A stretch of DNA of 64,000 nt from IMG/VR virus record IMGVR_UViG_3300044705_000115, positions 1-64,000 of that record; one strand, 5' to 3'. Positions within the stretch are counted from its first letter, which is position 1. Every line of letters starts with the position of its first letter. The stretch is from a virus. Below are positions 1,405 to 63,058 of the stretch, piece by piece. The position numbers were made by a program, and so were the translations under genes. Below the pieces are notes generated by a model that did not search any database, was not told where the DNA came from, and worked only from the letters and a program-made list of their open reading frames with translations.

Positions 1405-3111
1405 TTAGACCTCGCCCCGGATGAAAGCCGACATCGCGGCCGGAGCGCTGGTGTCGAAGCCGACGACATCCATGCTTCCGCTGTCGTTCGGATCGGCGAT
1501 GCTGAAATCGGTCGCGGTCATGCCGCAAACGATCAGCTTGGCGTCGATGCCCGATTTCTCGCGGTACTCGCGGAGCGCCTGCATGGGATGGATGTCGCCC
1601 GCCCACGTTTCGTTGTCGGTGTAGACGCAGAAGGCATCGACCTCGCGTTCCTCCTGCATCGCGTAGATCATCGGCAGGGCGCAGTCGGTCATGCCAACGT
1701 GACTGAGCCGGTCGAACTCGGCAGCGACATCGTTCAGCCGCATCGACGGCGTGACCGCCATCGGCGTGAAGCCCCGCTCATCCCGGTAGCCGCTGAAGTT
1801 GCCGTGACCCTGGCCAACCCCCAGCGAGTGCTTGATCCCACCGGGGATTTCGGAGCCAGCGAAGGCTACGGTCTCGTAGCGCGACTCCGAGCGAGCGGTG
1901 ACCATCGCCATGACCGCAGCGGCTTCCAGAGGAAGCAGGCCACCGAGTCCGTAGCGACCCCCAGCGTGGCGCATCGAGTTCGAGACATCGACAGCCAACA
2001 GGAACCGCTTGCCGGTCGGCTCGATGTTCTCGAAGGCCGAGTAGAAGGCGGCGTTCAGCGCATCGACGATCTGCGCCACCGGACTCCAGGTGTTGCCGCC
2101 CCGGTCGCCGTGGCCACTCTTGTACGTCATCAGCGCTGAGAGGACGGTCAGCGGGTGGACGCGAGCGCGACGGATGCGCTCACTGTCGCCGAGCTGGGCG
2201 ATCACCTTCTGGGTCGCCTCCCCGAAGGGGTCGAGCAGTCCCGAGCGCGTCATGTTGCCGAGGTTGCGGATCAACGCCGTCATCGGCATGTCCTCAAGCA
2301 GCGCCTCCTGAACCACCGGATCGGTCAGATGCTCGGAGCGGATCGCCTCACGGGGCAGCTTGTAGTCGCGGATCAGGTTCGCCGAGTTGCGCGGCGACTC
2401 CGCAACCTGGGCCATCCTGAAGCCCTCGATGACGCGCAGCACATGCGAGGGCGCGTCCAAGTCTCCGATGGGCACCGGCTTCTTGGTCGCGTTGCCGGTC
2501 ACGAACTCGAACAGTTCGGCGTGAGCGATCGACGGTGCCTTCGGATGGGCCAGCCGCAGGATGTCGCGGTGAGACCAGCCGTCGCGCTGGCGATACTTGA
2601 TGAGCTGGTAGGCCAGCTTCTCTGCGGGCCGGCCCGTGTACCAAGCGGCGACGCCGTGCCGCGCGGCCGGACCCCAGCCGCGGAACTGCTCCATGAAAGC
2701 CACGAAGTGCAGGATGTGGGTGCCGGTGCGGGCGACGCGCGGCAGGGCCTTGAAGGCGGCGCGGCGCGTCCCCTCGTCCTTGAAGGAGCAGGCCATTGCG
2801 AGGCAGAACAGCGCCGTGTCGTTGTCGCGGGCGAGGCCACGGTCGCTGACCTCGGCGATCAGCTCGACCGTGCGCTCGCCGTCCTCTGCGAGGCAGGCAT
2901 CGAGCGCCGCGACATTGCCCTTGACCATCTCGCGCTGCCCGACGTAGTAGGAGCCGCCTTCGGCGCCTAGGATCAGGAACCGGCGCAGGCGCGTCCAGAT
3001 GTCAACCTCCCAGGCGAAGCCGCCAGCGTTATTGGCGACCTGGCTCGAACCGGGGATCGGCTCGGACTGGGGGGTCTTGCGCGTCGAGTGATCGCGCAGG
3101 TAGTTGCTCAT
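1405..3111 (-). CDS. Ro60/TROVE-domain RNA-binding protein
   Basis: Bacterial-type Ro60 (Rsr), a ring-shaped RNA-binding protein that binds Y RNAs and misfolded RNA. 568 residues. The N-terminal HEAT-repeat TROVE region (about 20-350) carries FAWEVDIWTRLRRFLILG and the SYYVGQRE block. The C-terminal von Willebrand A-like domain has MIDAS residues DVSNSM (about 375-380), T at about 475 (GMTDCALP) and D at about 499 (YTDNETWAG). The linker PTGKRFLLAVDVS matches the family. The start ATG has GGAAGGAG upstream; a perfect 7-bp hairpin precedes it. A tRNA-like Y RNA lies immediately upstream on the same strand, which strongly supports the assignment. No PNPase gene is in the window. Confidence 0.95.
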   Translation of the reverse strand: MSNYLRDHSTRKTPQSEPIPGSSQVANNAGGFAWEVDIWTRLRRFLILGAEGGSYYVGQREMVKGNVAALDACLAEDGERTVELIAEVSDRGLARDNDTALFCLAMACSFKDEGTRRAAFKALPRVARTGTHILHFVAFMEQFRGWGPAARHGVAAWYTGRPAEKLAYQLIKYRQRDGWSHRDILRLAHPKAPSIAHAELFEFVTGNATKKPVPIGDLDAPSHVLRVIEGFRMAQVAESPRNSANLIRDYKLPREAIRSEHLTDPVVQEALLEDMPMTALIRNLGNMTRSGLLDPFGEATQKVIAQLGDSERIRRARVHPLTVLSALMTYKSGHGDRGGNTWSPVAQIVDALNAAFYSAFENIEPTGKRFLLAVDVSNSMRHAGGRYGLGGLLPLEAAAVMAMVTARSESRYETVAFAGSEIPGGIKHSLGVGQGHGNFSGYRDERGFTPMAVTPSMRLNDVAAEFDRLSHVGMTDCALPMIYAMQEEREVDAFCVYTDNETWAGDIHPMQALREYREKSGIDAKLIVCGMTATDFSIADPNDSGSMDVVGFDTSAPAAMSAFIRGEV

Positions 3112-3125
3112 CTGGGGCGCTCCTT

Positions 3126-3148
3126 CCGGGTCAGAGTGGAAGACCCGG
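3126..3148 (-). promoter_or_regulatory. Leader hairpin of the Ro60 mRNA
   Basis: CCGGGTC and GACCCGG form a perfect 7-bp stem with a 9-base loop directly before the GGAAGGAG ribosome site of the Ro60 gene. It could modulate translation; no evidence beyond position. Confidence 0.5.
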
Positions 3149-3223
3149 CGAGCGGGTGATGCAGACGGGGGTGATTTTCTCCAATGAAAAGGTAACCCGC
3201 CTGCTTCGGCCCGCCGGGCCAAA

Positions 3224-3380
3224 GCTATGTCGCGCTGAGCGGGATGTGCGCATCGACGTTTAGCGCTCTACCAACTGAGCTACCGCTGCCTTTCGGCGGC
3301 GGACAGGACTCGAACCTGCGACCTCTCTCTTAGCGTGAGATAACCGATCCGCTTCGGCTCAGCGCGTGCGCGAGCATAGC
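3224..3380 (-). ncRNA. Y RNA with tRNA-like module (YrlA type)
   Basis: About 157 nt, read on the minus strand from 3380. 5' half: outer stem GCTATG, Y stem GCGCTGAGC, bulge CGAAGC, GGAT, then a small 7-base-loop hairpin resembling an anticodon arm (3326-3340), a T-arm with loop TTCGAGT (3303-3319), an acceptor-like stem closed by a GAAA tetraloop (3283-3302), a D-arm GCTC..GAGC (3265-3280), then the 3' strand ATCC, GCTCAGCGC, CATAGC. The tRNA parts are therefore in circularly permuted order and the Y stem replaces the join between D and anticodon arms. This is the known YrlA layout, and it sits next to a Ro60 gene. Ends are inferred from the base pairing. Confidence 0.85.
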
Positions 3381-3499
3381 GAACTCGGAGCGGGTTGGTG
3401 CCTGCGGGGTTCGTTGTCAAGGCGATAACCCGCAAACTCCGGCTCCGAGTCCACTTCTGACCCGGCTGCTCCTCCCAAAGGAGCGCCGAGCGCCGCAGT

Positions 3500-5703: not shown

Positions 5704-8700
5704 CTATCCGTCGATGCGTTTGACCCTCGTCTTGGCGTCGATCAGGCCGAGGCTGCCCGACTTGAACCCGACCAGCGTTTTGCCCTCAGGCCCAGGCCCG
5801 ACGACGGAGGCGATGGTGCCGTCTTTGTCGGTGATGACGGCGCCGGGCTCGAGTTCTTCGAGCCGGTAGTGCATGTACTTCCCTTTCGACCCCCACTTCG
5901 ATGTGTAGCCGTTGAGCTCGGAGGTCGGCACATCGTCCATCGCCTGACCAGCTTCCGCCAGCACCTTTTCGACATCGGGCGACCACTGCGACTGCAGCGC
6001 CGCCGTGGGGTCGAGCTTCTGCGTGTCTTTCAGAACCAGCGTCGATGGCAACTGGTTGAGGCTGCCCCCCTCGTCCTTGATGATCGTGTTGCCATCGACC
6101 GTGTGGGCAACGACCTCGTTGGCACCGTTCGTCGTCGTGTACTTCTCCCCCGGCTTCAGGTCGCTGACGACGAACTCGCCGGGCATTGGTTTCACGCCCG
6201 CTGCGGGTTTCGCCGGAGCCAGCGGCCAGTCGCTCGTCGTGGCGCCGGGTGGCGCTTTGTGGAAGTTGCCCTGGGCGTCCTGAAGAACCACGCCATCGAG
6301 CGATTTGGCGATGACGGTGTAGTCCTTCAAGTCGTTACCGAAGAACGTTTCGCCCTCGTGGATGCTTTCGATGTTCTCGCTGGCGAGCGCCTTCTTCAAC
6401 TCGTCATCGCCCTTCGCTGTCAGCTTCACCTTGTCGGGGATGAGCTCCGCTTTGACCGAGAACTTGGCGCCGTCGGGATCGGTCATCTCGACCACTGCGT
6501 CTTCGGGGTGCTTGCCTTTGGACGCACCGACCGTGTAGGCGTAGCCAGCGATGGTGACCTTCGTGCCGACCGGCAGTTTCCCGATCGGCGTCTCGTCGCT
6601 GTTCGGCAGCAGACCCTTGGCGGCATCTGCCTGGCCAGGGTCCGTACCCGGCCCCGGCAGCGGCCCGGTGGCGTCGTTGAAGTCGGCGGTTACGGCGCGG
6701 CCACGCAGCTTCGGGTCGGCGCTGTAGAGGAGCTGGCCGTCGGTGACGATGACATCGCCGTCGTTGGCCTTGACCTTCCACAGCTTGCCTTCTTTGCCGC
6801 GGAAGATCGTTCCCACCGGCATGTCGCCGATCTTGTCGTGGGTGTACTTGCCGCCGCTGCCGTGCTTGGAGATATACGCCTCGAAGCCACCCTCCTCGAC
6901 ATGGGAGGGCATCCCCGAACTGCTCGGCGCTGGCGACTCGGCGTGGATCGCCGGGTTCTTGCCGATGAAGGTGATCGGCTTGTCGGGGTAGCTCCAAGCC
7001 GTTTCGGAGGCGGAGAGGTGGCCGGACGGCTGCACCATCGCCACCGTCAGGTTGTCCTCCGGGCCTCCCTTGGCCTGGACTTTGAAAAGCTCCCCGCCGT
7101 CCTTGAAGTAGTCGCCCACCTCCAGGTTGCTGAGGGTCGTCGAGTCCTCGGGTTTGAGCTGGTCGTGGGGGATCGCTTTCTCGCCGAGTTCGTTCTTCGC
7201 CCACAGCTCCGTGACCTTCGCATCGTCGGGGTAAGCCGTGACATCGCCGCTGGCCAGGTTCTTGACCGGCTTCTTGCCCGGCTCAGTCGATGCATTGGGA
7301 TCGCCGAAGACGGCTTCGTAGACATTCCCGGTCCAGTCCACGAACTTGTCCCCGTGTTCGAGGTCGGCAACCTGAAGCTCGGCGCCGGGAACGTAGTCGT
7401 CAGCGCTGAACGGCGCGTCCGCTGACTTCGGCGTGTTCTTGGGCTCGTCAGGCGCCGGAGAGGCTTCGGCATCGAGCAGACGGCGCACCACCTTGGACTT
7501 GGTCGAGACCCCCGCCTCGCCCGTGTCGAGGTTCTTCCACAGCACTTTGTTGCCCTCGGTGCCGGTGACCAGATAGGGGCGCTGAGACTGGCCGCGGCCC
7601 CCGTGGAAGAGGTCGCCGACAGCGAGATCGCCGACCTTGATTTTTGAGCCGATCTTGTGCGCCTGCGGGTCGTAGAGATCAGCGAGAGCTTCGTCGTCGG
7701 GCGAGATCGCCACGACTTTGCCGCCGGACGGTTTCGCCTTGATCGTCCCATCCTTCAAGACCTTCGTGATCGTGTGCTTCTTGCCCTGATAGGGCAGCGT
7801 CATCCCTTTCTGCGGGGTGAGCTGCGGCGCAGCGACATCCTCTTCGTCGGGGACGTAGCCCTCCTTGGCGACGAGAGTCGGCGTCTTGTAGTCGGTGTTG
7901 ATCGTCCCGACTTTCCCCGTCATCAGGTCGAGAATCTGCGTCTTCGCGCCGTTGATCTGGGCTTTGACTTCGTAGGGGTTGCCGTTGACCTTGAATTTCT
8001 CCCCCTCGGCCATCTGGCCGGTGAACTTCTCGCCCGTGCCGTTCACCCAGGCGTTGGGGTCGAACAGCTCCGACTCGGCCTGCAGCTTGTGCGGGTCGGG
8101 CAGGTCGTAATGCTCGCTCAGCTTGAAGTACTGGTTCTGGCCGCCGCCCTCGAAGTTGTAGCTCTCCCCAGTGAACTTGCCGTTCTCGATCTTCACGTAG
8201 CGCAGGCCGAATCCGGTGTCGTCGCCGGGGTCCTCAACGATCAGGTAGAGCGTGCCTTTCAGCCCCATCATGTAGTCGCCGGGCTTCAGTTCCGACTCCT
8301 TGGCGACGGTCGCTTTCGGCGTGCCGTCGGCGTTCTTGAATGCCCACGGCCCCGACTTGTCGAGCTCTGCCGGAGTCCACGGCTTGCTCTGCTGCGATGG
8401 CAGCTTGTCGGCGAAGCGAGCCGAGAACTCGGCGGCCTCCGCCGGCGGGTCGATCCAGAGCTTCTGCGCCTGGCCCTGCATCTGAACATCGGGCGGCGCT
8501 GGCGGGGTCGGCAGCATCTCGCCGTTCTCGATCGCGTCGCGGAAGCGTTCGATGGTGGCGCCGCCGGAGGGCGCTTTGGTGACGCCCATCAGCCACTTTT
8601 TCTGGTTCTCGGTGATGTCGTAGAGCGAGAAGTACATCGACCGCTTGTCGATCTTGATCTGCTCCGCGACGCTGATCTCCAGCTCGCCGACGAAGTGCGT

Positions 8701-10212
8701 CTGCCCTGGGATCGGCTGCGCCGAGTAGGACGACATCAGGACATGGCGGATCGCCAGCGGCGTAGCGAGCGTGTTGTTGCCGAACTGGAAGTTGGCCCCG
8801 AAGTTGAAGCTCTGCGAGAGGCCGGACATGATCGGCTTCTTGCCGTCGATCATGGCCTGCCAGTAGCTCGGCGCGTTCGTGTTCTTGTGGAAGACCGCGA
8901 CATCCGGCGAGCGGGTGCGGTTGTAGAGGTCCCAGGCGACGATGTCTTTGTGGCGGCCCTGCAGCGCCAGCGCCAGTTTGCGCTGCTCGTCCAGCTTGCC
9001 GAGTTCGGTTTTGCCGCCCTTGAACGCCTTGAACATCGAGGCCAGCGAGAGCGTGAAGCCGCTCGACGACCCATACTGGGCGGAATAGGCGTTCTTGACG
9101 ATTGACTGGATCGTCGCCTCGTAGTCCTTGTAGCTCTCGTCGATCAAGTCCTTCGCCTTGCCCGGCGAGTATTTGCCGAATCTCTGCATCAGCTCGGCGT
9201 AATGCTCCTGATCGACCGAGCCGAAGCGCTGCCACTCCTCCGGCTTGATCTTCGAGTGGGCGGGGATCGCGATGGAAGGGTCATGGGTCGTCGGATCGAC
9301 GTAGGGATCGACGGTCGCCACGCCGGATTCGATGCCCTTGGCCTTGTCCGATTTCAGAGCTACCGGCTTGCCCTCCTTCTTGGCGTCAGCGATGAACGCC
9401 TTGCCGCCCTCAAGGGAAGGGCTGAAGACGCCGGTTTCCGCGTCTTTGAAGCTCTTGCCGATGCGGTTGGCGATGACCTTCCCGCCCGCAAGGTGGGCGA
9501 CCTGCCACTCCTTGCCGTCTCCCGAGATGAAGGTCTCGCCGACCTTGATGAACTCGCCCGCCTTCGGCGTCCCTTTCGGCCAGCGGGGGTGCAGGGTCGG
9601 GTCCCACTTGCCCTCCATCAGCGCCTCCGCGAGGCTGGCGGCGGCGCTGCCGCCGAGGGCGAAGCTGTATCGGTCGCCCCCCCAGGCGAGCGTCACGCGC
9701 GAGAACGCGACCGGGATCGGCTTCTCGATATTCGGTCGCCGGCGGGCGTAGTCGAGCGTCATGTGCGGCGTGAAGCCGTGGTCGCGGCTCGGCGGCAGGC
9801 CCGCCTGGTCGAGCGTATCGACGAGTTCCTGCCGCAGCGGAGGGAGGTCGGGAAGATCGACCGAGAGGTAGGTGACCGGCCCAGCGATGAACTGACCGAC
9901 GCCGCTGATCTCTCCGCGCATCTCTTCCGGGCACTTCGCGGCCCAGGTCGCTACGACTCGCAGCGCGTCTTTGAGGTCGAGATCAGCGGCCTTCCCGAGG
10001 AACGCGAGCGTCACATGGAGTTCATCGGCGTCCTCGCCGTCGGCGATGGCCAGCTCGGCCGCCGTGGCGGCGTCGGGGAAGAGAGCGACCATCGCGCCTT
10101 GCTTGGTCGCCGCCGTCGCGGCCTCCATAAGGGAAGCGGCAGCGGTGTCAGCGAGCAGTTCGTCGGGGTCGCCGTCAGCCTCGACCGGCTCGAAGACAGG
10201 TTCGCGCAGCAC
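5704..10212 (-). CDS. Giant multidomain protein: 2H phosphoesterase, ART-like domain, beta repeats
   Basis: 1502 residues from a GTG at 10212, chosen because it follows the upstream stop; an in-frame start at 10308 would overlap that gene. About residues 60-190: 2H-phosphoesterase (LigT-like) with the two HxT motifs HVTLAFLG (about 66) and HMTLDY (about 150). Then the WDPTLHPRWPKGTPKAGEF linker common in actinophage head proteins. Residues about 320-520 have an ADP-ribosyltransferase-like pattern ending in an E-x-E (GELEISV, about 510). From about 640 to the end are some 10 beta-rich units of the form L.vGD.F...G..Y.V. Probably virion-associated; the enzymatic activities are inferred from motifs only. 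Confidence 0.75.
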   Translation of the reverse strand: MLREPVFEPVEADGDPDELLADTAAASLMEAATAATKQGAMVALFPDAATAAELAIADGEDADELHVTLAFLGKAADLDLKDALRVVATWAAKCPEEMRGEISGVGQFIAGPVTYLSVDLPDLPPLRQELVDTLDQAGLPPSRDHGFTPHMTLDYARRRPNIEKPIPVAFSRVTLAWGGDRYSFALGGSAAASLAEALMEGKWDPTLHPRWPKGTPKAGEFIKVGETFISGDGKEWQVAHLAGGKVIANRIGKSFKDAETGVFSPSLEGGKAFIADAKKEGKPVALKSDKAKGIESGVATVDPYVDPTTHDPSIAIPAHSKIKPEEWQRFGSVDQEHYAELMQRFGKYSPGKAKDLIDESYKDYEATIQSIVKNAYSAQYGSSSGFTLSLASMFKAFKGGKTELGKLDEQRKLALALQGRHKDIVAWDLYNRTRSPDVAVFHKNTNAPSYWQAMIDGKKPIMSGLSQSFNFGANFQFGNNTLATPLAIRHVLMSSYSAQPIPGQTHFVGELEISVAEQIKIDKRSMYFSLYDITENQKKWLMGVTKAPSGGATIERFRDAIENGEMLPTPPAPPDVQMQGQAQKLWIDPPAEAAEFSARFADKLPSQQSKPWTPAELDKSGPWAFKNADGTPKATVAKESELKPGDYMMGLKGTLYLIVEDPGDDTGFGLRYVKIENGKFTGESYNFEGGGQNQYFKLSEHYDLPDPHKLQAESELFDPNAWVNGTGEKFTGQMAEGEKFKVNGNPYEVKAQINGAKTQILDLMTGKVGTINTDYKTPTLVAKEGYVPDEEDVAAPQLTPQKGMTLPYQGKKHTITKVLKDGTIKAKPSGGKVVAISPDDEALADLYDPQAHKIGSKIKVGDLAVGDLFHGGRGQSQRPYLVTGTEGNKVLWKNLDTGEAGVSTKSKVVRRLLDAEASPAPDEPKNTPKSADAPFSADDYVPGAELQVADLEHGDKFVDWTGNVYEAVFGDPNASTEPGKKPVKNLASGDVTAYPDDAKVTELWAKNELGEKAIPHDQLKPEDSTTLSNLEVGDYFKDGGELFKVQAKGGPEDNLTVAMVQPSGHLSASETAWSYPDKPITFIGKNPAIHAESPAPSSSGMPSHVEEGGFEAYISKHGSGGKYTHDKIGDMPVGTIFRGKEGKLWKVKANDGDVIVTDGQLLYSADPKLRGRAVTADFNDATGPLPGPGTDPGQADAAKGLLPNSDETPIGKLPVGTKVTIAGYAYTVGASKGKHPEDAVVEMTDPDGAKFSVKAELIPDKVKLTAKGDDELKKALASENIESIHEGETFFGNDLKDYTVIAKSLDGVVLQDAQGNFHKAPPGATTSDWPLAPAKPAAGVKPMPGEFVVSDLKPGEKYTTTNGANEVVAHTVDGNTIIKDEGGSLNQLPSTLVLKDTQKLDPTAALQSQWSPDVEKVLAEAGQAMDDVPTSELNGYTSKWGSKGKYMHYRLEELEPGAVITDKDGTIASVVGPGPEGKTLVGFKSGSLGLIDAKTRVKRIDG

Positions 10213-10582: not shown

Positions 10583-10881
10583 CGCGGCACGTTCTGGGAG
10601 CGAACGGTGAAGGAGCGCTCCTCCGCGCCCTGGTGATTCCCAGCCCCATCGAAGGCGTACCACCACCGGCCCGACCGATCAACGATGATCGTCGCCCTGT
10701 AGACCCCCGTTTCCACTTTGGAAACAGTTGGCGTCAGGTAGTCAGAGGCGGGTGCTTTCGGTGGTCGCACCGTGCAGACGACCACTTCGGGATCAACCCG
10801 TTCCTTGGTGGTCGCGTCGGTGAAGACGACGGTCAGAATCGGCTGGTCGCCGATGTCGTAGATGTTCTCCTGGTCGCTCAC
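10579..10881 (-). CDS. Ig-like phage structural protein (100 aa)
   Basis: Beta-sandwich pattern: N-terminal YDIGDQPILTVVFTDA, middle VSKVETGVYRATIIVDRSG, then RWWYAFDGAG. Similar small proteins accompany tail or head genes in actinophages. GTG start overlaps the stop of the long tail protein (GTGA). Confidence 0.6.
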   Translation of the reverse strand: MSDQENIYDIGDQPILTVVFTDATTKERVDPEVVVCTVRPPKAPASDYLTPTVSKVETGVYRATIIVDRSGRWWYAFDGAGNHQGAEERSFTVRSQNVPR

Positions 10882-13800
10882 GAGAAGCCGTCCGTCATCG
10901 ACAGGTTAGTCGCGGCGCGGTCGTCCGTGTCGCTGCTGAGCGCCGCGATGTCCTCGAGGGAGGTCTTGGTCGAGAGCAGGTCTGCCAGCGCCAGGATCGC
11001 TTTGTGGGCCGCCATGCCTTCCGGCCTGACCCGCTCTTCAAGGTCGGTGAGCTCGTGGAGCGCCTTGACCTGATCCCGTCGCAGGCCCTCTGCGATCGAC
11101 AGCGCCTCGTGGATGTTGACGCCGAGGTTGTGGAGGGTGGTGACCGCATCGTCGAAGGCTGCGGCGTCCTTCGGCGTCAGGCCCAGGCCGCGGCTGCGGA
11201 AGTCGAACGGCAGGATGTGGTCGCGCAGAGACAGGGCGTAGCTGCGGCGCATCTGGTCGGTGAAGGAAGCCGTGTCGCGGCGCCGGGCGGCGGCGCTGGC
11301 ATTCCGCCCGTCAGCAGCGGTCGCCGCGTCGCGGATGCCCTTGCCGGGGCCGCTCCGCCGGCCATCGACCAGAGCGAAGGCGGCTTTCAGTACTTCGGCC
11401 ACATGGTTGCTCCGGGCGTCCTGGGGGATGACCATCTCGTGCAGCGACTTTGAGATCGAGCGCCGCGCCAGCTCGCTCGCCGCGATGCTCTCCGGCCGTC
11501 GCAAGCCGATGCCGCGCCGTACGTGTTCGCCGAGAGCGAGCAGATCGCCGAGGTGCTTGGCGATGGCGCTCGCGTGGCTGTCGGGGACGAAGATGCCCTC
11601 TCGCATGAGGCGCCGGAAGCCGAGCGAGCGGTGATCAGAGACCGTCGCTGCATCTGCCCGTTTGAAGACCGCCGCCCACATCCGCTCGAGCGCGTCTTTG
11701 ACGACTGCGTGCTCGTGGGGGTTGGTGCCTTTGGCGGCCAGGGCTTCGATGGCGTCTTCGAGGGAGAAGAGGTCGGCCACGTTGACGACAGCACCCCAGG
11801 CCCGCTCGCTTTCGTCGGTCAGCACTAGCGCCTCCGCCAGGTGCTTGCCAGCGGCGACCCGGGCGGCATCCAGCAGGCCCAGGGAGTCCGCTGCACGAAG
11901 CTTCGCCGCCCAGGCCCTCGCCACCGCATCGGCGACCTCGACCATGTTGCCGATGCCGATCCCCTCGATCGGGTGGATGGCGTCGGAGACACCGACCATC
12001 TCGGAGAGGCCTTTGCCAACGGCGAGGCGCCGGGCGGCGCTGACGCTGAGCGAGTCGCTGGTGTGAATTCCCGCTGCGCGGCGCACGACTGCGGCCACGG
12101 CTGCCGCGTCAGCCCTCCTCAGCGCCGTAGAGAGCCTGCGCGAGTCCACGGGGGAGAGATGTTCGTCGAGGGCGACATGGGCCGCCCAGACGCTCACAAG
12201 CGCGTCGGAGAGATCGGCGATCTCGTCGATTTCGAGTTCCTGGCCCAGCTTGACGATGAAGTCGTCGCTGAGGGGAATCGAGTCCGCGAGCGAGCGCCGC
12301 GCGATCCAGGCATGGATCAGCAGCTCTTCCAGCAGCGCCGCGTCGGCGATCCGCTTGGATCCGCTCCGCCTCAGCGAGTCGGTCGGGCTGGCAGCGTCTT
12401 TCCGTCGGACGCCGGGGCGCAGGTTGTCAGCATCGGCGGTGGCGAAGGCGTCTTTGCGGGCCACGCCGGCGCGGCGATGCATCACATCGACGATGGTCGC
12501 CGCCTCCGACTTCCGCAGGCCCAGCGTCCGCGCCAGTTTGTCGGTCAGGGCCACCGAGTCCGCCCGCTTCCCGCCCGCCGTGCGTTTGATCGCGTCGGCG
12601 AGGGCGATGATGTCTTTGCGCTGCGGGCCTGCCGCGCGTTTCAGCAGGTCGCTGAGCGCCTGGGTATCGCTGCGCTTCATGCCAGGCCGCTTGCTCCGCG
12701 ACTCCGAGACCGAGAGCAGCGCATCGGTGCGTTTCATCTGGTCGGCGCCTTTGCGCGACTCCGAGGGCGCCACGCTGTCTTCGAGTTTCAGCGTTTTCGC
12801 TTCGCCAGCAGCAGCCTTGAAGCCGATCTGGATGCCGATCGTCGCTTCCGCTTCGCTGACCGTGAAGTTCAGTTCGCCAGTCGCCGTTTCTTTCGTCGGC
12901 ACGACCTTGCGGGCGACGTACTGGGCGTGGGTGCTTTCCACGGCATCGTCGTGGGTCAGGATCGACGCTGCAGGGTAGGCGGTCACTGGGTGCCCGACGG
13001 TGCCACCCACCCAGGCCAGAAGCAGCTCGTCGGCGAATCCGGTGGTCAGCCCTTTCGTTTTCAGCGTGGTCGATGAGGCATTGGTCTGGTTGGTCGAGGT
13101 GTCCAGTCCGACTTTGCCGCCCGAGCGCGGGCGGAAGGACATCACGACAGCCTGGATGCTTGCCGATCCAGACCATTCGATTTTGAGGCTCTGAGAGCCG
13201 TCGTCTTCCTTCCAGAAGACCGCCTGGCGGTCGGTCGAACTCGCTACATCGACCGCCTTTTCCCAGCCAGCAGTGAAGCCGGTGATCGCTGGCGGCGGCG
13301 TCGTGTGGAAGTTGACGAGGACGACGAGCAGATCGCCTTTTTCGGCCCCAGTTGGCCGCGTATAGGTTTTCGAGCTGGAGACGCCTTCGTTGAATTCCGC
13401 CTTCTTGCCCGTCATGAACCAGCGGGCCGGGCGGACGCTGAAGGAGACGTTGGCACGTTCGGCCGAGGTCGCTGCGGTGGCGATCATGGTGCCGGTCGCG
13501 CCAGCCTTCGGCAGGATCGCCGAGGCAACCATGAGCGAGCCGCCGTCGCCTTCCGCCGTCGTGTTGTCGATGCGCTCGTTGATCGACGTGACGGAAGCGT
13601 TGGTCTGAGCGGAGAACTCGGCCGTGCCGGTCGCATCGGGCAGCGAGCCAGCCGAGGCGAAGAAGATGAGGTCGTTATCGACTTTCGTCGTGTGGCCGAA
13701 GACCTGCACTTCTTTGCTCGCGGCCTGCGTGTTGAATTCGCCTTCGTCGAAGGGGTTGTCGCGATCGAAGGTGCCAGCCTTGACGGCGATGATCCGTGCC

Positions 13801-14663
13801 ATCTGGTGATCGCCCGTGTCGGGGACGGTGCGCCCAGGCGCCGTCGACGTGGCGACCTGCCAGAGCACAGTCAGCCGCGTGTTCCCTTTCAGGTTCGATT
13901 CGCCGAAGACATTGCTCCAGCCCGAGATCGTCGGCACCGTTCCCGACCCCTGCGATTCGATGAACATCAGCAGCAGGTCGTCCAGCACGACCCCAGCGGG
14001 CATCCCCGGCGTGATCGTGCCGGTGCCAGCGGCGATGGCACCGACAGCGCGGACTTCCGGCGCCGTGGTCGTGAGCTGGAAGGCGCCTACGTTGGCGACG
14101 CGGCCAGCGGTGCCAGCGATGCCTTCTGACCAGAAGAAGATCGCAGCCCTGAGGGCTACCGATTCCGGCACAGCCCCCGTCGTGCTGAAGGCTTCCGACC
14201 AGGCACCGCCCGTTTTCCGCCAAGCCGTGAGTTTGCCGCTCGGCTCCCAGCTCAGAGCAAAGGAGTCGCCCGCAGCGAGGCCGACTCCGGTTTTTTCCGT
14301 GCCTGCCGGGATGCTGGTGCCGAACAGCGAGAGGGTGCAGGTCGAGGTGCCGGTGCGGATGATCGCCAGCCCTGCTTTCTGGTTTTCCCCAGCGACGCCG
14401 AACTGCATTTCGACCGCTTGGCTGGTGGCTGGCAGAACCGGGATTTCAAAGCCGATTAGGCCTCCGACAGTCCAGACCTGAGCGGTTTTGCGCCGTGCGC
14501 CAGCCGAGCCTTTTTCAGCAGTGATCGTCCATCCGGTAGAAGTCGCCTGGCCGCTGTTGGCTACAGCTTCGGAGGCTTTTTCCCATTCACCAGCGAGCGG
14601 GTTTTCGGTGCGCTTCAGCGTGTCGATGACCCCGAGGCCTTCGACCTGTTCTTTGACCGTCAT
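10878..14663 (-). CDS. Large tail protein with beta N-half and helical repeat C-half
   Basis: 1261 residues. The first 620 or so are Ser/Thr/Gly-rich beta structure typical of tail fibre or minor tail proteins, with recurring units around VGAIAAGTGT and FSVRPARW. From about 630 to 1240 there are roughly 28 short repeats of 18-22 residues built on hRRxDxhxhxDxhxRxxG, which look like a helical rod. No catalytic motif seen. It follows the 149-aa tail protein gene. Assignment as tail fibre is inference from composition and context. Confidence 0.65.
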   Translation of the reverse strand: MTVKEQVEGLGVIDTLKRTENPLAGEWEKASEAVANSGQATSTGWTITAEKGSAGARRKTAQVWTVGGLIGFEIPVLPATSQAVEMQFGVAGENQKAGLAIIRTGTSTCTLSLFGTSIPAGTEKTGVGLAAGDSFALSWEPSGKLTAWRKTGGAWSEAFSTTGAVPESVALRAAIFFWSEGIAGTAGRVANVGAFQLTTTAPEVRAVGAIAAGTGTITPGMPAGVVLDDLLLMFIESQGSGTVPTISGWSNVFGESNLKGNTRLTVLWQVATSTAPGRTVPDTGDHQMARIIAVKAGTFDRDNPFDEGEFNTQAASKEVQVFGHTTKVDNDLIFFASAGSLPDATGTAEFSAQTNASVTSINERIDNTTAEGDGGSLMVASAILPKAGATGTMIATAATSAERANVSFSVRPARWFMTGKKAEFNEGVSSSKTYTRPTGAEKGDLLVVLVNFHTTPPPAITGFTAGWEKAVDVASSTDRQAVFWKEDDGSQSLKIEWSGSASIQAVVMSFRPRSGGKVGLDTSTNQTNASSTTLKTKGLTTGFADELLLAWVGGTVGHPVTAYPAASILTHDDAVESTHAQYVARKVVPTKETATGELNFTVSEAEATIGIQIGFKAAAGEAKTLKLEDSVAPSESRKGADQMKRTDALLSVSESRSKRPGMKRSDTQALSDLLKRAAGPQRKDIIALADAIKRTAGGKRADSVALTDKLARTLGLRKSEAATIVDVMHRRAGVARKDAFATADADNLRPGVRRKDAASPTDSLRRSGSKRIADAALLEELLIHAWIARRSLADSIPLSDDFIVKLGQELEIDEIADLSDALVSVWAAHVALDEHLSPVDSRRLSTALRRADAAAVAAVVRRAAGIHTSDSLSVSAARRLAVGKGLSEMVGVSDAIHPIEGIGIGNMVEVADAVARAWAAKLRAADSLGLLDAARVAAGKHLAEALVLTDESERAWGAVVNVADLFSLEDAIEALAAKGTNPHEHAVVKDALERMWAAVFKRADAATVSDHRSLGFRRLMREGIFVPDSHASAIAKHLGDLLALGEHVRRGIGLRRPESIAASELARRSISKSLHEMVIPQDARSNHVAEVLKAAFALVDGRRSGPGKGIRDAATAADGRNASAAARRRDTASFTDQMRRSYALSLRDHILPFDFRSRGLGLTPKDAAAFDDAVTTLHNLGVNIHEALSIAEGLRRDQVKALHELTDLEERVRPEGMAAHKAILALADLLSTKTSLEDIAALSSDTDDRAATNLSMTDGFS

Positions 14664-59212: not shown

Positions 59213-62200
59213 CTACGACCGCGTCAGGACGGCATCTATCACGAGCGAGCCGTTCTCCTCGTGAGCGCCAGCGATGCGGACGCTCTGGCCGCGGTTGATC
59301 AGTACCGCGCCCGGCTCGGTCGAGTACTCGCCCATTGGCAGCGCCGGGGCGCCGGCTGGCACGAGGATGCGCATCACGGCTTTGCCGGTCTCCGCCTGGG
59401 AGGGATCGATCGAGGCGATCAGGTAGCCAGCGTCCCGCAGGCGACGGCCCCGCAGCGCTTCTGCGTCCTGGGCGCCAAGTCCCTCGATCGAAGTCGGCAC
59501 GTAGACGTAGGCGTCTTCGGGCGAGCGCACATCGCGCATCAGCGCGTCCATGACATCGACCGTCTTCGCGTGGTCGCCAGGGTCGCCGGAGCGCAGCGCC
59601 GCGTTGATGGCCTCGCCGCCATCCGCCAGGTCGCCCAGCGCGTGTTCCTCCTCGGGGTAGAGGCCGCCGGCCTTCCTCAGCCCGGCGTCGAGTTCGCGCT
59701 GTGCGTCCGCGCCCTCAGCGGGGCCGGGCAGGCCCTCGGTGCCATCGGCGATCTCCCCCATGAACGAGACCCGCGCCTTCAGGTTTTCGCGCACCCGCTC
59801 GCGCATCGCCTCATCCGCGAAGGGCGCGGCATCGACGAGCGCGTCGATCCGCTGCGGCGTCAGCCGCTCGGCGATGTCCCCAGCCTGGTCGCGGAGCATC
59901 TGGTCGTTCAGCGCCATGCGCCCAAACGCCTGCCCGCCGCCGGGCGCCCGCATCGTCCAAGCCTCGGTCGGCACCGGGCCGTAGGGCTTCGGTTTGCCCA
60001 TCGCCCGGAACTCGAAGGTGCCGCCCTGGTCGAGGCGGATCGGTTCGCCGTCCGGCCCCCAGAGGACGTTGTCCTGGTCGAGTCCGACGACATCCCAGTT
60101 GCCGAGCAGCGCATCGGCCATGAAGCCTTCCCCGAGCGGCTGGCTCTCGCCATTCCAGCGTTCGATGTCGCCGTCGCGGGCGGGGTAGGCGACGGCCGTC
60201 CAGCTCTTGCCGCCAGTGGGGAAGGCGTGCTGCTGGGCAGTGGCCTTGCCGAGCGAAGCGATCTGGCCGCTCCATGCAGAGTTCGCAGCGTCGAAGTCGG
60301 CCTTCGAGACCTCCTGATCACCGACGAAGTAGGTCTTCTTGCCATCAACCGTCTTCACTTTCGGGTCGCCCTTGGGAGGGGGTGACGGCTCCTCGACTGG
60401 CGCCTTTTTGAGGGAGCTATCGACCTGCATCTGACCGGCGTTCGGCACGTCGATCCCCAGCTCGCGGTAGACCGCGTTGGCCAGCAGCTCGCTCGCCACG
60501 CGGTCGCGGTTGCCGCGGTAGGGCTTCACCAGCCATTTGCGCCCGTCTTTGTCGGTGGCGAACTGGGCGCCGTTGGATCCGCCGGCGGGCTTGAAGTCGG
60601 TCAGCCCCGCATCCTCGGCGCTGTAGCTCGGCACGCCGAGTACTGGCGCCGGCGGTTTTTCGGCCAGGCTCATCTGCAGCGCCTTGTCCTCCTCGGCAGG
60701 CGCACGCTGCTCAGTCCCGTCGCTGGGCGCCATCTGCGGCGGCACAGCTTTGCCCAGGCGGTCGTCGGTGATGCCGTGGCGTTCGAGTACCCCGACGGTC
60801 TCGGCGTTGGCGAGGCGCTGTGGCGTCGAGTACAGCTTGCTCTCGCCGTCGGGCTTGGTGAAGCGCATCGAGCCTTTCGGCCCGCGTTTGATGTTCGAGC
60901 CGTCGGCCAGCGTGACCATCTCCGGCGCGGCACTGTTGAACGGCTCGTAAGCGGGCAGCGCCGCCATCTTGCGAAGGAGCGAGCGCCGCGGGTCCGAGTA
61001 GTGCCGCGCGTCGAAGAACTGCGGCCCTGACCCCTTCGTCAGCTTGACCGGCTCCCCAGGCGCGTTCTGCGCGGTCTCCGCAGCGATCTGCGGGGCTTCT
61101 ACCGCTCCCCCCGTGTCCGTGGGTCCATCCCCGGTCTTCGACGGCTCAGCGGCGCTGAGAACGCCCTCGGGGACTACCGGGAGCTTCGTGTCGTAGTCGG
61201 GAACCAGCGCACCGCTCTCGTCGGCGATCCCGAGCTCGTGGTCGCGCTCCCCGCGCAGAGTCGCCCGCACGCGGATGCCAGCTTCGCCGGGCGAGATGCC
61301 CTGCTGCTTGGCGAGCAGCCCGCCGAGCAGAAGTACTCGCGCCTGATGCCCCTGCCGGAAGCCCATCGTCTCCACCAGTCCGGCGCGGGCCTCGGCCGGT
61401 ACGCCCGCCTCATCGAGCAGATGCGCGAGCCGCGTGCGCTCCAGCGTGTACGCGCCTTTGGCCGTGGGGTGGTCGGGGTTGGCCTCGGCCCACTTGCTCG
61501 CGCCCTCGAACCCGTCAGCGGCGAGCCAGCGCTTGCCTTCGATCCGCCCCGTCTCCTCGGCCAGCGCCTCCTCGAGGGCGTAGCCGTCCGGCGTCGAGTA
61601 CTCCTCGGGCGTGACCGGGTTTACCCCGTGGCCGACCGCCTCGTGCGCGGCCCGGGAGTAGAGCAGGTAGCCCCGGCGCTGCGCCTCGGCGTTTTCGGGG
61701 TTGGCCCGCAGCTCGTCGAGATGGCCAGGCGCGTCCTTGCCGATCTCGCTCCTCCCGTCGAACCAGCGCAGCGCCGTGGTGTCGGGCTCGTTGGGGTTTA
61801 CGTCGATCCCCTGAAAGACCGCCTTGGCATCGTGCGCCGCGGCGGCCTCGTCGACCCCGTCCTGAACGCGACCGCGCCAGGCGTGGAAGTCCTTGGGCGG
61901 CCCGCCAGCGTGCGGATGCGTGTCCTCGTTGGCTGAGACCGGGCCGTGGCCGCCGGGCATCTTGTCCACACCGACTTCGCGCAGCCGCTTCGCCGTCTCC
62001 TCGCTCTTCGCCCATGCCCGGCGGTAGCTATCCGGCGTGTGACCGCCGGGCGGGCGCGGCACCGCCACCTTGGCCGAGCCGGCGCGGCCACGCTTCTTGG
62101 TGTTCACGGCCAGCAGGTCGCCGACGGCATCTTTCAGGTCGTGGCTGACTGCTGCGGCGAAGCCGCCGACTTTGGGCATGAACTCCCCGCCCTTGACCGT

Positions 62201-63058
62201 GCCTTTGGCGAAGCGCCGGTCGTAGGGGGCCTCGATCAGGTTCATGGCGACGCGGTGATCCTCCATCGCCTCGACTAGGCGCCGCAGTTCGTCCTCGTCG
62301 GTGACCGCCTCGCGCAACTCGGCGAAGCGTTCCTGAAGCTGGCGGGCCAGTGCGATCCCGTCCTCGGGCGGCGGAGGCGTGAAGTCGTGCGGCAGGAAGC
62401 CCTCGCTGATCGCTTCATCCAACCCGTAGAGGCGGCAGGGGCAGTTGGGGTGGCGCGGAGGGTGGATGACGTCCAGCACCGCCCACGGCCAGAACTTCCC
62501 CGCCATCACCAGGCAGTCGATCGTGTGCGACTTCACGAACGGGCTGAGCCGCCAGTAGGCGCCGAGCGGCGAGGTCCGCTTCAGCGACTCGCGCTCCTGG
62601 GCGGAGATGGAGCGGCTGAGCATCGCTTCCTGCCGCTGGCGGATGTAGCGGAACTCGCGTTCGAGCAGTACTCGCAGGGCGGCTTCGGGGTCGTTGGAGG
62701 AGAGCAGCGCCTTCGGGATGTCGCGCTCGAGCCGCGCTTCCATCTTGCGGATGAACTGCGCCCCGCGGTCGGCCTCCTCCTGGGCCAGCTTGCGCAGCAG
62801 GTCTTCTGGCTCGGCCGGGAACTGCCGGCGGAGCGTCTGCCACAGCCAGAAGATGTCGTCGGAGCCGTTCCCCCAGAACTTCCGCAGCGCCTCGATCGAA
62901 GCGGCGGTGGTGGCGGCGAGCGCGGCTGGCTCGAGGACGGCGGCCCCGGTCGCCGGGATCGCGGTCGCCGCCGCGGCGGTTGCGGCTCCTGCACCGGCCG
63001 CTCCGGCGGCCCCAGCGCCCGAGCTGCGTGGTTCTTCGGCGCGGCGAGGCTGCGGCAT
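59213..63058 (-). CDS. Multidomain MuF-type head protein with HExxH, kinase-like and ART-like domains
   Basis: 1281 residues. About 50-215: MuF/SPP1 gp7-like head morphogenesis domain, ending HPPRHPNCPCRLYGL. 471-510: HEAVGH with a downstream acidic helix (EEALAEETGR), a zincin-like metallopeptidase motif. About 820-1020: kinase-like fold related to HipA/PI3K-type phage domains, with KWLVK (K845), NWDVVGLDQDNVLW (about 987) and RLDQGG (D1010). About 1120-1281: ADP-ribosyltransferase-like fold in which the expected first Arg, S-T-S and E-x-E residues are not seen, so probably inactive. Likely injected or head-internal; that is inference. Confidence 0.8.
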   Translation of the reverse strand: MPQPRRAEEPRSSGAGAAGAAGAGAATAAAATAIPATGAAVLEPAALAATTAASIEALRKFWGNGSDDIFWLWQTLRRQFPAEPEDLLRKLAQEEADRGAQFIRKMEARLERDIPKALLSSNDPEAALRVLLEREFRYIRQRQEAMLSRSISAQERESLKRTSPLGAYWRLSPFVKSHTIDCLVMAGKFWPWAVLDVIHPPRHPNCPCRLYGLDEAISEGFLPHDFTPPPPEDGIALARQLQERFAELREAVTDEDELRRLVEAMEDHRVAMNLIEAPYDRRFAKGTVKGGEFMPKVGGFAAAVSHDLKDAVGDLLAVNTKKRGRAGSAKVAVPRPPGGHTPDSYRRAWAKSEETAKRLREVGVDKMPGGHGPVSANEDTHPHAGGPPKDFHAWRGRVQDGVDEAAAAHDAKAVFQGIDVNPNEPDTTALRWFDGRSEIGKDAPGHLDELRANPENAEAQRRGYLLYSRAAHEAVGHGVNPVTPEEYSTPDGYALEEALAEETGRIEGKRWLAADGFEGASKWAEANPDHPTAKGAYTLERTRLAHLLDEAGVPAEARAGLVETMGFRQGHQARVLLLGGLLAKQQGISPGEAGIRVRATLRGERDHELGIADESGALVPDYDTKLPVVPEGVLSAAEPSKTGDGPTDTGGAVEAPQIAAETAQNAPGEPVKLTKGSGPQFFDARHYSDPRRSLLRKMAALPAYEPFNSAAPEMVTLADGSNIKRGPKGSMRFTKPDGESKLYSTPQRLANAETVGVLERHGITDDRLGKAVPPQMAPSDGTEQRAPAEEDKALQMSLAEKPPAPVLGVPSYSAEDAGLTDFKPAGGSNGAQFATDKDGRKWLVKPYRGNRDRVASELLANAVYRELGIDVPNAGQMQVDSSLKKAPVEEPSPPPKGDPKVKTVDGKKTYFVGDQEVSKADFDAANSAWSGQIASLGKATAQQHAFPTGGKSWTAVAYPARDGDIERWNGESQPLGEGFMADALLGNWDVVGLDQDNVLWGPDGEPIRLDQGGTFEFRAMGKPKPYGPVPTEAWTMRAPGGGQAFGRMALNDQMLRDQAGDIAERLTPQRIDALVDAAPFADEAMRERVRENLKARVSFMGEIADGTEGLPGPAEGADAQRELDAGLRKAGGLYPEEEHALGDLADGGEAINAALRSGDPGDHAKTVDVMDALMRDVRSPEDAYVYVPTSIEGLGAQDAEALRGRRLRDAGYLIASIDPSQAETGKAVMRILVPAGAPALPMGEYSTEPGAVLINRGQSVRIAGAHEENGSLVIDAVLTRS

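What the first reader, a model, noticed from the sequence alone, without database searches (positions are those of the whole stretch)
5704..10212. 1502-residue protein: 2H phosphoesterase, ART-like domain and about ten beta repeats
The 2H domain has both HxT motifs. A middle region shows an E-x-E after a Ser-Phe strand, as in ADP-ribosyltransferases. The rest is a string of L.vGD.F...G..Y.V units that I do not recognise. 2H enzymes can remove 2'-5' oligoadenylate or ADP-ribose 1''-2'' phosphates, so linkage to an ART-like domain or to anti-CBASS/anti-OAS defence is an attractive idea.
Basis: partly seen in the sequence, partly recalled or inferred. Interest (0 to 1): 0.7.

Follow-up and report, generated by a model that had tools for sequence, protein, structure and literature searches.

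The report
Giant multidomain phage effector protein
A roughly 130-kb phage encodes a 1502-residue protein that joins an intact phosphodiesterase domain, a possible ADP-ribosyltransferase and twelve small barrel repeats; it looks like one of several large proteins that such phages pack in the particle and inject to disarm the host, a known kind in a new domain combination.

Summary
The ORF is real: minus strand, 5704-10212, 1502 aa, GTG start. An ortholog (1434 aa, same gene order) occurs in a 134,735-bp phage, and four more homologues (1413-1873 aa) lack the 2H domain. The 2H domain is certain: Pfam score above cut-off, both HxT motifs invariant in 34 aligned relatives, confident AlphaFold2 core, Z 17.4/15.7 to CPDase/LigT. 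Its nearest relatives are embedded in portal, MuF, head-protease and capsid proteins, so it belongs to the head-linked 2H group of phage 'polyvalent proteins' (Iyer 2017), not to the Acb1 family. The 'ART-like' region is a conserved domain with invariant H442, S463-x-L-S466 and E510-x-E512 in six homologues, but no profile search identified it and its model is poor: unproven. Repeats: 12 found, probably Tudor/KOW-type SH3-like barrels; one is cleanly absent in the ortholog. A linker motif (HPR..KG..GEF) marks exactly three proteins of the phage, all giant, and an N-terminal DPDxLL motif recurs among siblings. Best reading: a head-packaged, injected effector whose 2H cleaves a host nucleotide signal or RNA. 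The substrate (anti-CBASS or otherwise) is untested. New variant of a known kind.

The parts
5704..10212 (-). whole gene, 1502 aa, GTG start
   Evidence: ortholog G001 1434 aa; five homologues in all
10105..10212 (-). N-terminal helical lead segment (residues 1-36) carrying the DPDxLL motif (10153-10170)
   Evidence: motif within the first 45 residues in 1 of 200 own proteins; also in the G001, L055 and L056 homologues and the L053 Nudix-Zeta sibling
9649..10104 (-). 2H phosphoesterase domain (residues 37-188)
   Evidence: PF13563 4e-11; model core pLDDT 94-98; Z 17.4 to 5h7e, 15.7 to E. coli LigT
10009..10017 (-). first HxT motif, H66-V-T68
   Evidence: H66 and T68 invariant in 34 aligned relatives and H,T invariant in 66 ORFs
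9757..9765 (-). second HxT motif, H150-M-T152
   Evidence: invariant
9550..9609 (-). linker motif KWDPTLHPRWPKGTPKAGEF (residues 202-221)
   Evidence: pattern hits exactly 3 of 200 own proteins, all giant, against 0.05 expected after shuffling
9409..9558 (-). barrel repeat 0 (residues 219-268)
   Evidence: leave-one-out profile; model matches Tudor/KOW barrels, Z 4-5
8473..9312 (-). ART-like domain (residues 301-580)
   Evidence: conserved in six homologues, 38-78% identity; family not identified
8887..8889 (-). invariant H442 (FHK/FHGS motif; possible first catalytic position of an H-type ART)
8815..8826 (-). invariant S463-x-L-S466 (possible STS-like motif)
8677..8685 (-). invariant E510-x-E512 (ExE motif)
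5710..8298 (-). barrel repeats 1-11 (residues 639-1501)
7204..7371 (-). repeat 5 (residues 948-1003), absent as a unit in the G001 ortholog
59213..63058 (-). sibling 1281-aa MuF-type protein with the same linker class (RRFAKGTVKGGEF), a kinase-like region and a degenerate ART-like end; its homologues lie immediately upstream of the ART-repeat gene in other phages

Best explanation
It is a phage 'polyvalent protein': a large multidomain effector, most likely packaged in the head and delivered with the DNA, that works at the start of infection. In the proposed mechanism the N-terminal DPDxLL segment and the HPR..KG..GEF linker direct the protein into the procapsid or mark domain boundaries. After ejection the 2H domain, using the two HxT motifs, hydrolyses a 2'-linked or cyclic phosphodiester: a host nucleotide alarm signal or an RNA end. 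The ART-like domain modifies a host target using NAD+. The twelve Tudor/KOW-like barrels hold the protein on a host nucleic-acid or protein complex. Shown here: gene, ortholog, purifying selection, intact 2H motifs and fold, conserved domain with H/SxLS/ExE, repeats, head-type kinship of the 2H, and shared motifs with sibling giants. Inferred: packaging and injection, 2H activity and substrate, ART fold and activity, function of linker and repeats.
For: 2H: PF13563 above cut-off; HxT motifs invariant; confident model and Z 15-17 to CPDase/LigT. Head linkage: of 66 2H relatives, 18 match Phage_portal, 12 MuF, 10 XkdF protease, 3 capsid, with the same picture in PHROGs; structural neighbours in viral proteins are mostly large actinophage proteins, two annotated as structural or capsid morphogenesis. 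Context: in L053 and L055 the homologous gene follows portal and MuF-kinase-ART genes, in L054 and L056 a giant polyvalent protein; the siblings carry Nudix, Zeta kinase, GNAT and ADPrib_exo_Tox domains, the typical polyvalent repertoire (PMC5512222, PMC9503650). The linker motif is confined to the three giants. dN/dS 0.24-0.28 in both candidate enzyme domains.
Against: No direct evidence of virion location. In this genome the gene lies about 50 kb from portal and MuF, although it leads into the capsid module if the contig is circularly permuted. No family search identifies the ART-like region and its model is unreliable. The barrel assignment of the repeats rests on weak matches to a moderate-confidence part of the model.
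Confidence: 0.6

Rival explanations
1. Anti-CBASS/anti-signalling enzyme in the strict sense: the 2H domain is a functional equivalent of Acb1 that degrades cyclic oligonucleotides or 2'-5' oligoadenylate-like alarm molecules, and the rest of the protein is delivery and anchoring.
For: Same fold and catalytic motifs; structural matches include rotavirus VP3 (Z 15), MHV ns2 (Z 12.8), Acb1 (Z 11.2) and poxvirus cGAMP PDE (Z 9.6). Iyer et al. 2017 proposed this role for polyvalent 2H domains.
Against: The best structural matches are bacterial CPDase/LigT, not Acb1; no Acb1 Pfam match at E<=1, and only 5 of 66 relatives match it, at best 3e-4. Acb1-type proteins in the structure lists are about 150-aa standalone proteins.
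Confidence: 0.3
2. RNA-end repair or processing: the 2H opens 2',3'-cyclic phosphates left by host RNases and the ART-like domain removes the 2'-phosphate as Tpt1/KptA does, together with the phage's Ro60, YrlA-like RNA and tRNAs.
For: The 2H matches LigT/CPDase best; 2H plus KptA-type ART is a known repair pair (PMC9503650); Ro60 and YrlA-like RNA lie just downstream and 21 tRNA genes are in the window.
Against: No RtcB and no above-cut-off RNA_ligase (PF09414) in the contig; Iyer et al. never found these 2H versions with RNA ligases; no Tpt1/KptA Pfam match; a virion-associated giant is an odd place for a repair enzyme.
Confidence: 0.15
3. A structural head protein in which the 2H and ART-like parts are vestigial and serve only binding.
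For: 2H domains recur inside portal, MuF, protease and capsid proteins; some sibling ART-like ends look degenerate.
Against: Both HxT motifs are invariant in 66 relatives, H/SxLS/ExE are invariant in six homologues, dN/dS is low; the 2H is dispensable, being absent in four of six homologues.
Confidence: 0.1
4. The middle domain is not an ART but an unrelated, perhaps new, enzyme or binding fold; the ExE is coincidental.
For: No profile or structural match; other residues (NRTxSPD, TPxAIRH) are just as conserved.
Against: The order and spacing H442 / S463-S466 / E510-E512 fit ART motif order (own knowledge of the family), and one homologue has VFHGS, like the HGT/HGS motif of H-type ARTs.
Confidence: 0.45

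Closest known systems
Polyvalent proteins of phages (Iyer et al. 2017, PMC5512222), 2H-bearing and ART-bearing members
   Same: Large multidomain phage protein, 2H domain of the portal/MuF-linked kind, siblings with Nudix, Zeta, GNAT, ART, kinase and MuF in neighbouring genes
   Different: The array of about 12 Tudor/KOW-like repeats and this ART-like family were not found described; 'Tudor', 'KOW' and 'SH3' do not occur in that paper's text. Packaging not shown
LigT / bacterial CPDase 2H phosphoesterases (5h7e, 5ldm)
   Same: Fold (Z 15.7-17.4) and both HxT motifs
   Different: Those are standalone cellular proteins of about 180 aa; here the domain heads a 1502-aa phage protein
Acb1 anti-CBASS nuclease (7t26)
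   Same: 2H fold (Z 11.2), two HxT motifs, phage origin
   Different: Acb1 is a small standalone protein; no Acb1-model match here; substrate unknown
MuF-ART proteins (PF03496) of the same phage group
   Same: Neighbouring genes in related phages, same linker class, ExE-type ART
   Different: The ART-like domain of this protein does not match PF03496 or the sibling ARTs

Membership tests
2H phosphoesterase superfamily | two HxT/S motifs | tested here: met
   H66-V-T68 and H150-M-T152; H and T invariant in 34 and 66 relatives
2H phosphoesterase superfamily | 2H fold | tested here: met
   Core pLDDT 94-98, Z 17.4, rmsd 2.4 over 148 residues to 5h7e; Pfam above cut-off
2H phosphoesterase superfamily | phosphodiesterase activity | not testable with these tools
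   needs an assay
Polyvalent proteins (Iyer 2017) | several effector-type domains in one large phage polypeptide | tested here: met
   2H plus a conserved second domain plus repeats in 1502 aa; only the 2H is identified with certainty
Polyvalent proteins (Iyer 2017) | encoded among or fused to virion/packaging genes | tested here: met
   Directly after portal-MuF genes in L053 and L055; 2H relatives fused to portal, MuF, protease, capsid. In this genome itself the gene is 50 kb from portal
Polyvalent proteins (Iyer 2017) | packaged in the virion and injected | not testable with these tools
   needs virion proteomics
ART superfamily | R/H - S/Y - E catalytic motif order | tested here: inconclusive
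   H442, S463-x-L-S466, E510-x-E512 invariant in six homologues, but not aligned to any known ART
ART superfamily | ART fold or profile match | tested here: inconclusive
   No profile match; model below pLDDT 50
Acb1 | match to the Acb1 family profile (PF23474) | tested here: not met
   Not among matches at E<=1
Acb1 | cleavage of cyclic oligonucleotides | not testable with these tools
   needs an assay
Tudor/KOW/SH3-like barrel repeats | five-stranded SH3-like barrel | tested here: inconclusive
   Repeat 0 matches many Tudor/KOW barrels at Z 4-5 over 50-60 residues; model pLDDT 54-67
RNA-repair 2H (LigT/Pnkp-type with RNA ligase) | RNA ligase partner in the genome | tested here: not met
   No RtcB; PF09414 only below cut-off, at the DNA ligase gene. 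Other RNA ligase families not tested; the contig may be incomplete

The most novel reading that the evidence does not exclude
The phage group uses a shared code to load different effectors into its head: an N-terminal DPDxLL peptide and an HPR..KG..GEF linker act as packaging or prohead-protease processing signals, so that enzyme domains (2H here; Nudix and Zeta in a sibling; none in others) are swapped as cassettes in front of a constant ART-like plus Tudor/KOW-repeat chassis that anchors them in the host.
Probability: 0.3. Interest if true: 0.65.

Novelty: new variant of a known kind. Interest (0 to 1): 0.45.

Why it matters
2H domains inside phage head proteins were predicted in 2017 to disarm nucleotide-based immunity or act as RNases; in the papers searched here I found no test of it. 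A protein whose 2H is intact, easily excised at a marked linker, and present in only two of six homologous chassis gives a clean natural comparison. If the linker and N-terminal motifs prove to be packaging or processing signals, they would predict injected effectors in many phages and could be used to load cargo into phage heads.

Tried and rejected
Plain tblastn of the ART-like and repeat regions against 50,697 phage records: no match even at E 10 and 1. Single-sequence scans of viral contigs for P0001 or the ART-like region: none; they worked only after the MCP scan led to the G001 ortholog and an alignment was used. Genome-contig scan: none. A profile scan of 22 MCP relatives found only G001, so the gene is not a core gene of that MCP group. 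A combined 2H+ART alignment for one model was misaligned by MAFFT and dropped. AlphaFold2 of residues 205-720 gave a poor ART-like core; its Foldseek matches were not used for that domain. hhalign of the ART-like profile against sibling ARTs found nothing. PF03496 found nothing in the own contig, but the control was silent too, so this is uninformative. DNA tandem repeats: none. A further profile scan brought no new homologue. The first repeat profile was trained on its own units and is circular; only the leave-one-out version is cited as evidence.

Full report
What is there. The ORF lies on the minus strand, 5704-10212, 1502 aa. The window is the first 64 kb of a 130,043-bp virus contig. The contig has phage packaging and tail genes: terminase large subunit 69.2-71.0 kb, portal 66.3-68.4 kb, major head protein 118.0-119.1 kb, tail sheath and tape measure protein, so it is a contractile-tailed phage. 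A close relative, G001 (134,735 bp), has an ortholog of 1434 aa in conserved order. Its gene order continues from the left end of our contig into its right end, so the two ends are neighbours in the genome and our gene leads into the capsid module.

2H domain. Pfam 2_5_RNA_ligase2 at 43.6 bits against a cut-off of 27. The two HxT motifs are invariant in 34 aligned relatives, and in the 66 non-redundant ORFs only M1, H, T, G, F, H, T are invariant. The AlphaFold2 model has core pLDDT 94-98 with both motifs on or at predicted strands. The closest solved structures are bacterial CPDase/LigT (Z 15.7-17.4), then rotavirus VP3 (15.3), MHV ns2 (12.8), Acb1 (11.2) and poxvirus cGAMP PDE (9.6). Of the 66 relatives 18 match Phage_portal, 12 MuF, 10 the XkdF head protease and 3 a capsid family (PHROGs). 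Structural neighbours among viral proteins are mostly large actinophage proteins, including 'putative structural protein' and 'capsid morphogenesis protein'. So this is the head-linked 2H group.

ART-like domain. Residues 301-580 are conserved in six homologues found through IMG/VR. H442, S463, L465, S466, E510 and E512 are invariant, and one homologue reads VFHGS at the histidine. This order resembles ART catalytic motifs. But Pfam, PHROGs and PDB profile searches find nothing, hhalign against the ARTs of sibling proteins finds nothing, and the model is unreliable there. I put the ART reading at about even odds.

Repeats. Twelve units of about 50 residues (one before and eleven after the ART-like domain) were tested by leaving each out of the profile: 11 of 12 beat at least 199 of 200 shuffles. 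In the ortholog one unit is missing cleanly (residues about 935-1010), and the C-terminal repeats evolve fastest (dN/dS 0.54 against 0.24-0.28 elsewhere). The first unit, modelled with moderate confidence, matches Tudor/KOW SH3-like barrels (UvrD C-terminal Tudor, Spt5, NusG) at Z 4-5; this is suggestive only.

Modularity and delivery. Four of six homologues lack the 2H but keep linker, ART-like domain and repeats. In L053 and L055 the gene follows portal and MuF-kinase-ART genes, and in L053 also a Nudix-Zeta protein; in L054 and L056 it follows a giant polyvalent protein. The linker HPR..KG..GEF occurs in exactly three of 200 own proteins, all giants, against 0.05 expected by shuffling. A short N-terminal DPDxLL motif recurs in the ortholog, two further homologues and the Nudix-Zeta sibling. 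This suggests cassette exchange between a constant front peptide and a constant linker; packaging or processing roles are inference.

Mechanism. The most likely account is a head-packaged, injected early effector. Iyer et al. 2017 already proposed that polyvalent 2H domains act as RNases or degrade immune nucleotides, and ARTs in packaged phage proteins are described in PMC9503650. The substrate cannot be chosen from sequence. An RNA-repair role is less likely, as no RtcB or above-cut-off RNA_ligase was found.

Novelty. The class is known. New here are the combination of 2H, an unidentified ART-like family and a Tudor/KOW-like repeat array, the repeat loss, and the shared motifs. Interest is moderate.

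Noticed in passing
window 3145-3451 (-), upstream of the TROVE/Ro60 gene 1405-3111; L050:17261-17942 in the relative: YrlA (Y RNA-like) matches below Rfam's gathering score but at E 6e-5 (own) and 5e-7 (G001), with T-arm-like and D-arm-like stretches, directly upstream of a phage Ro60 gene in both phages: a candidate phage Ro60-Y RNA pair. Folding energy alone is not unusual.
   Followed up: partly
window 59213-63058 (-): 1281-aa MuF-type polyvalent protein with an HEAVGH peptidase-like stretch, a kinase-like region and a C-terminal ART-like end that lacks the usual catalytic residues; homologues in L053 and L055 carry an intact-looking ADPrib_exo_Tox domain.
   Followed up: partly
contig 121188-125690 (-), outside the window: 1500-aa protein with four peptidoglycan-binding domains, the same linker motif and an SH3-like stretch, just upstream of the capsid genes.
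   Followed up: partly
L056:49-6906 (+): 2285-aa protein with GNAT, ART, Zeta kinase, RyR and kinase-like regions in one chain, next to the ART-repeat gene.
   Followed up: no
L085:5507-12001 (+): N-terminal 2H followed by HPRDHNGRF and an SH3-like stretch in an ORF of over 2100 aa: the same front architecture in an unrelated phage.
   Followed up: no
window 10878-14663 (-): 1261-aa protein with long DxxxLxDxxxR-type repeats in its C-terminal half; no family match. The ortholog is only 775 aa at 31% identity.
   Followed up: no
contig 126703-128583: DNA ligase on the minus strand beside a Ku-like gene on the plus strand: a phage end-joining pair.
   Followed up: no
window 15478-52932: 21 tRNA genes in several clusters.
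   Followed up: no
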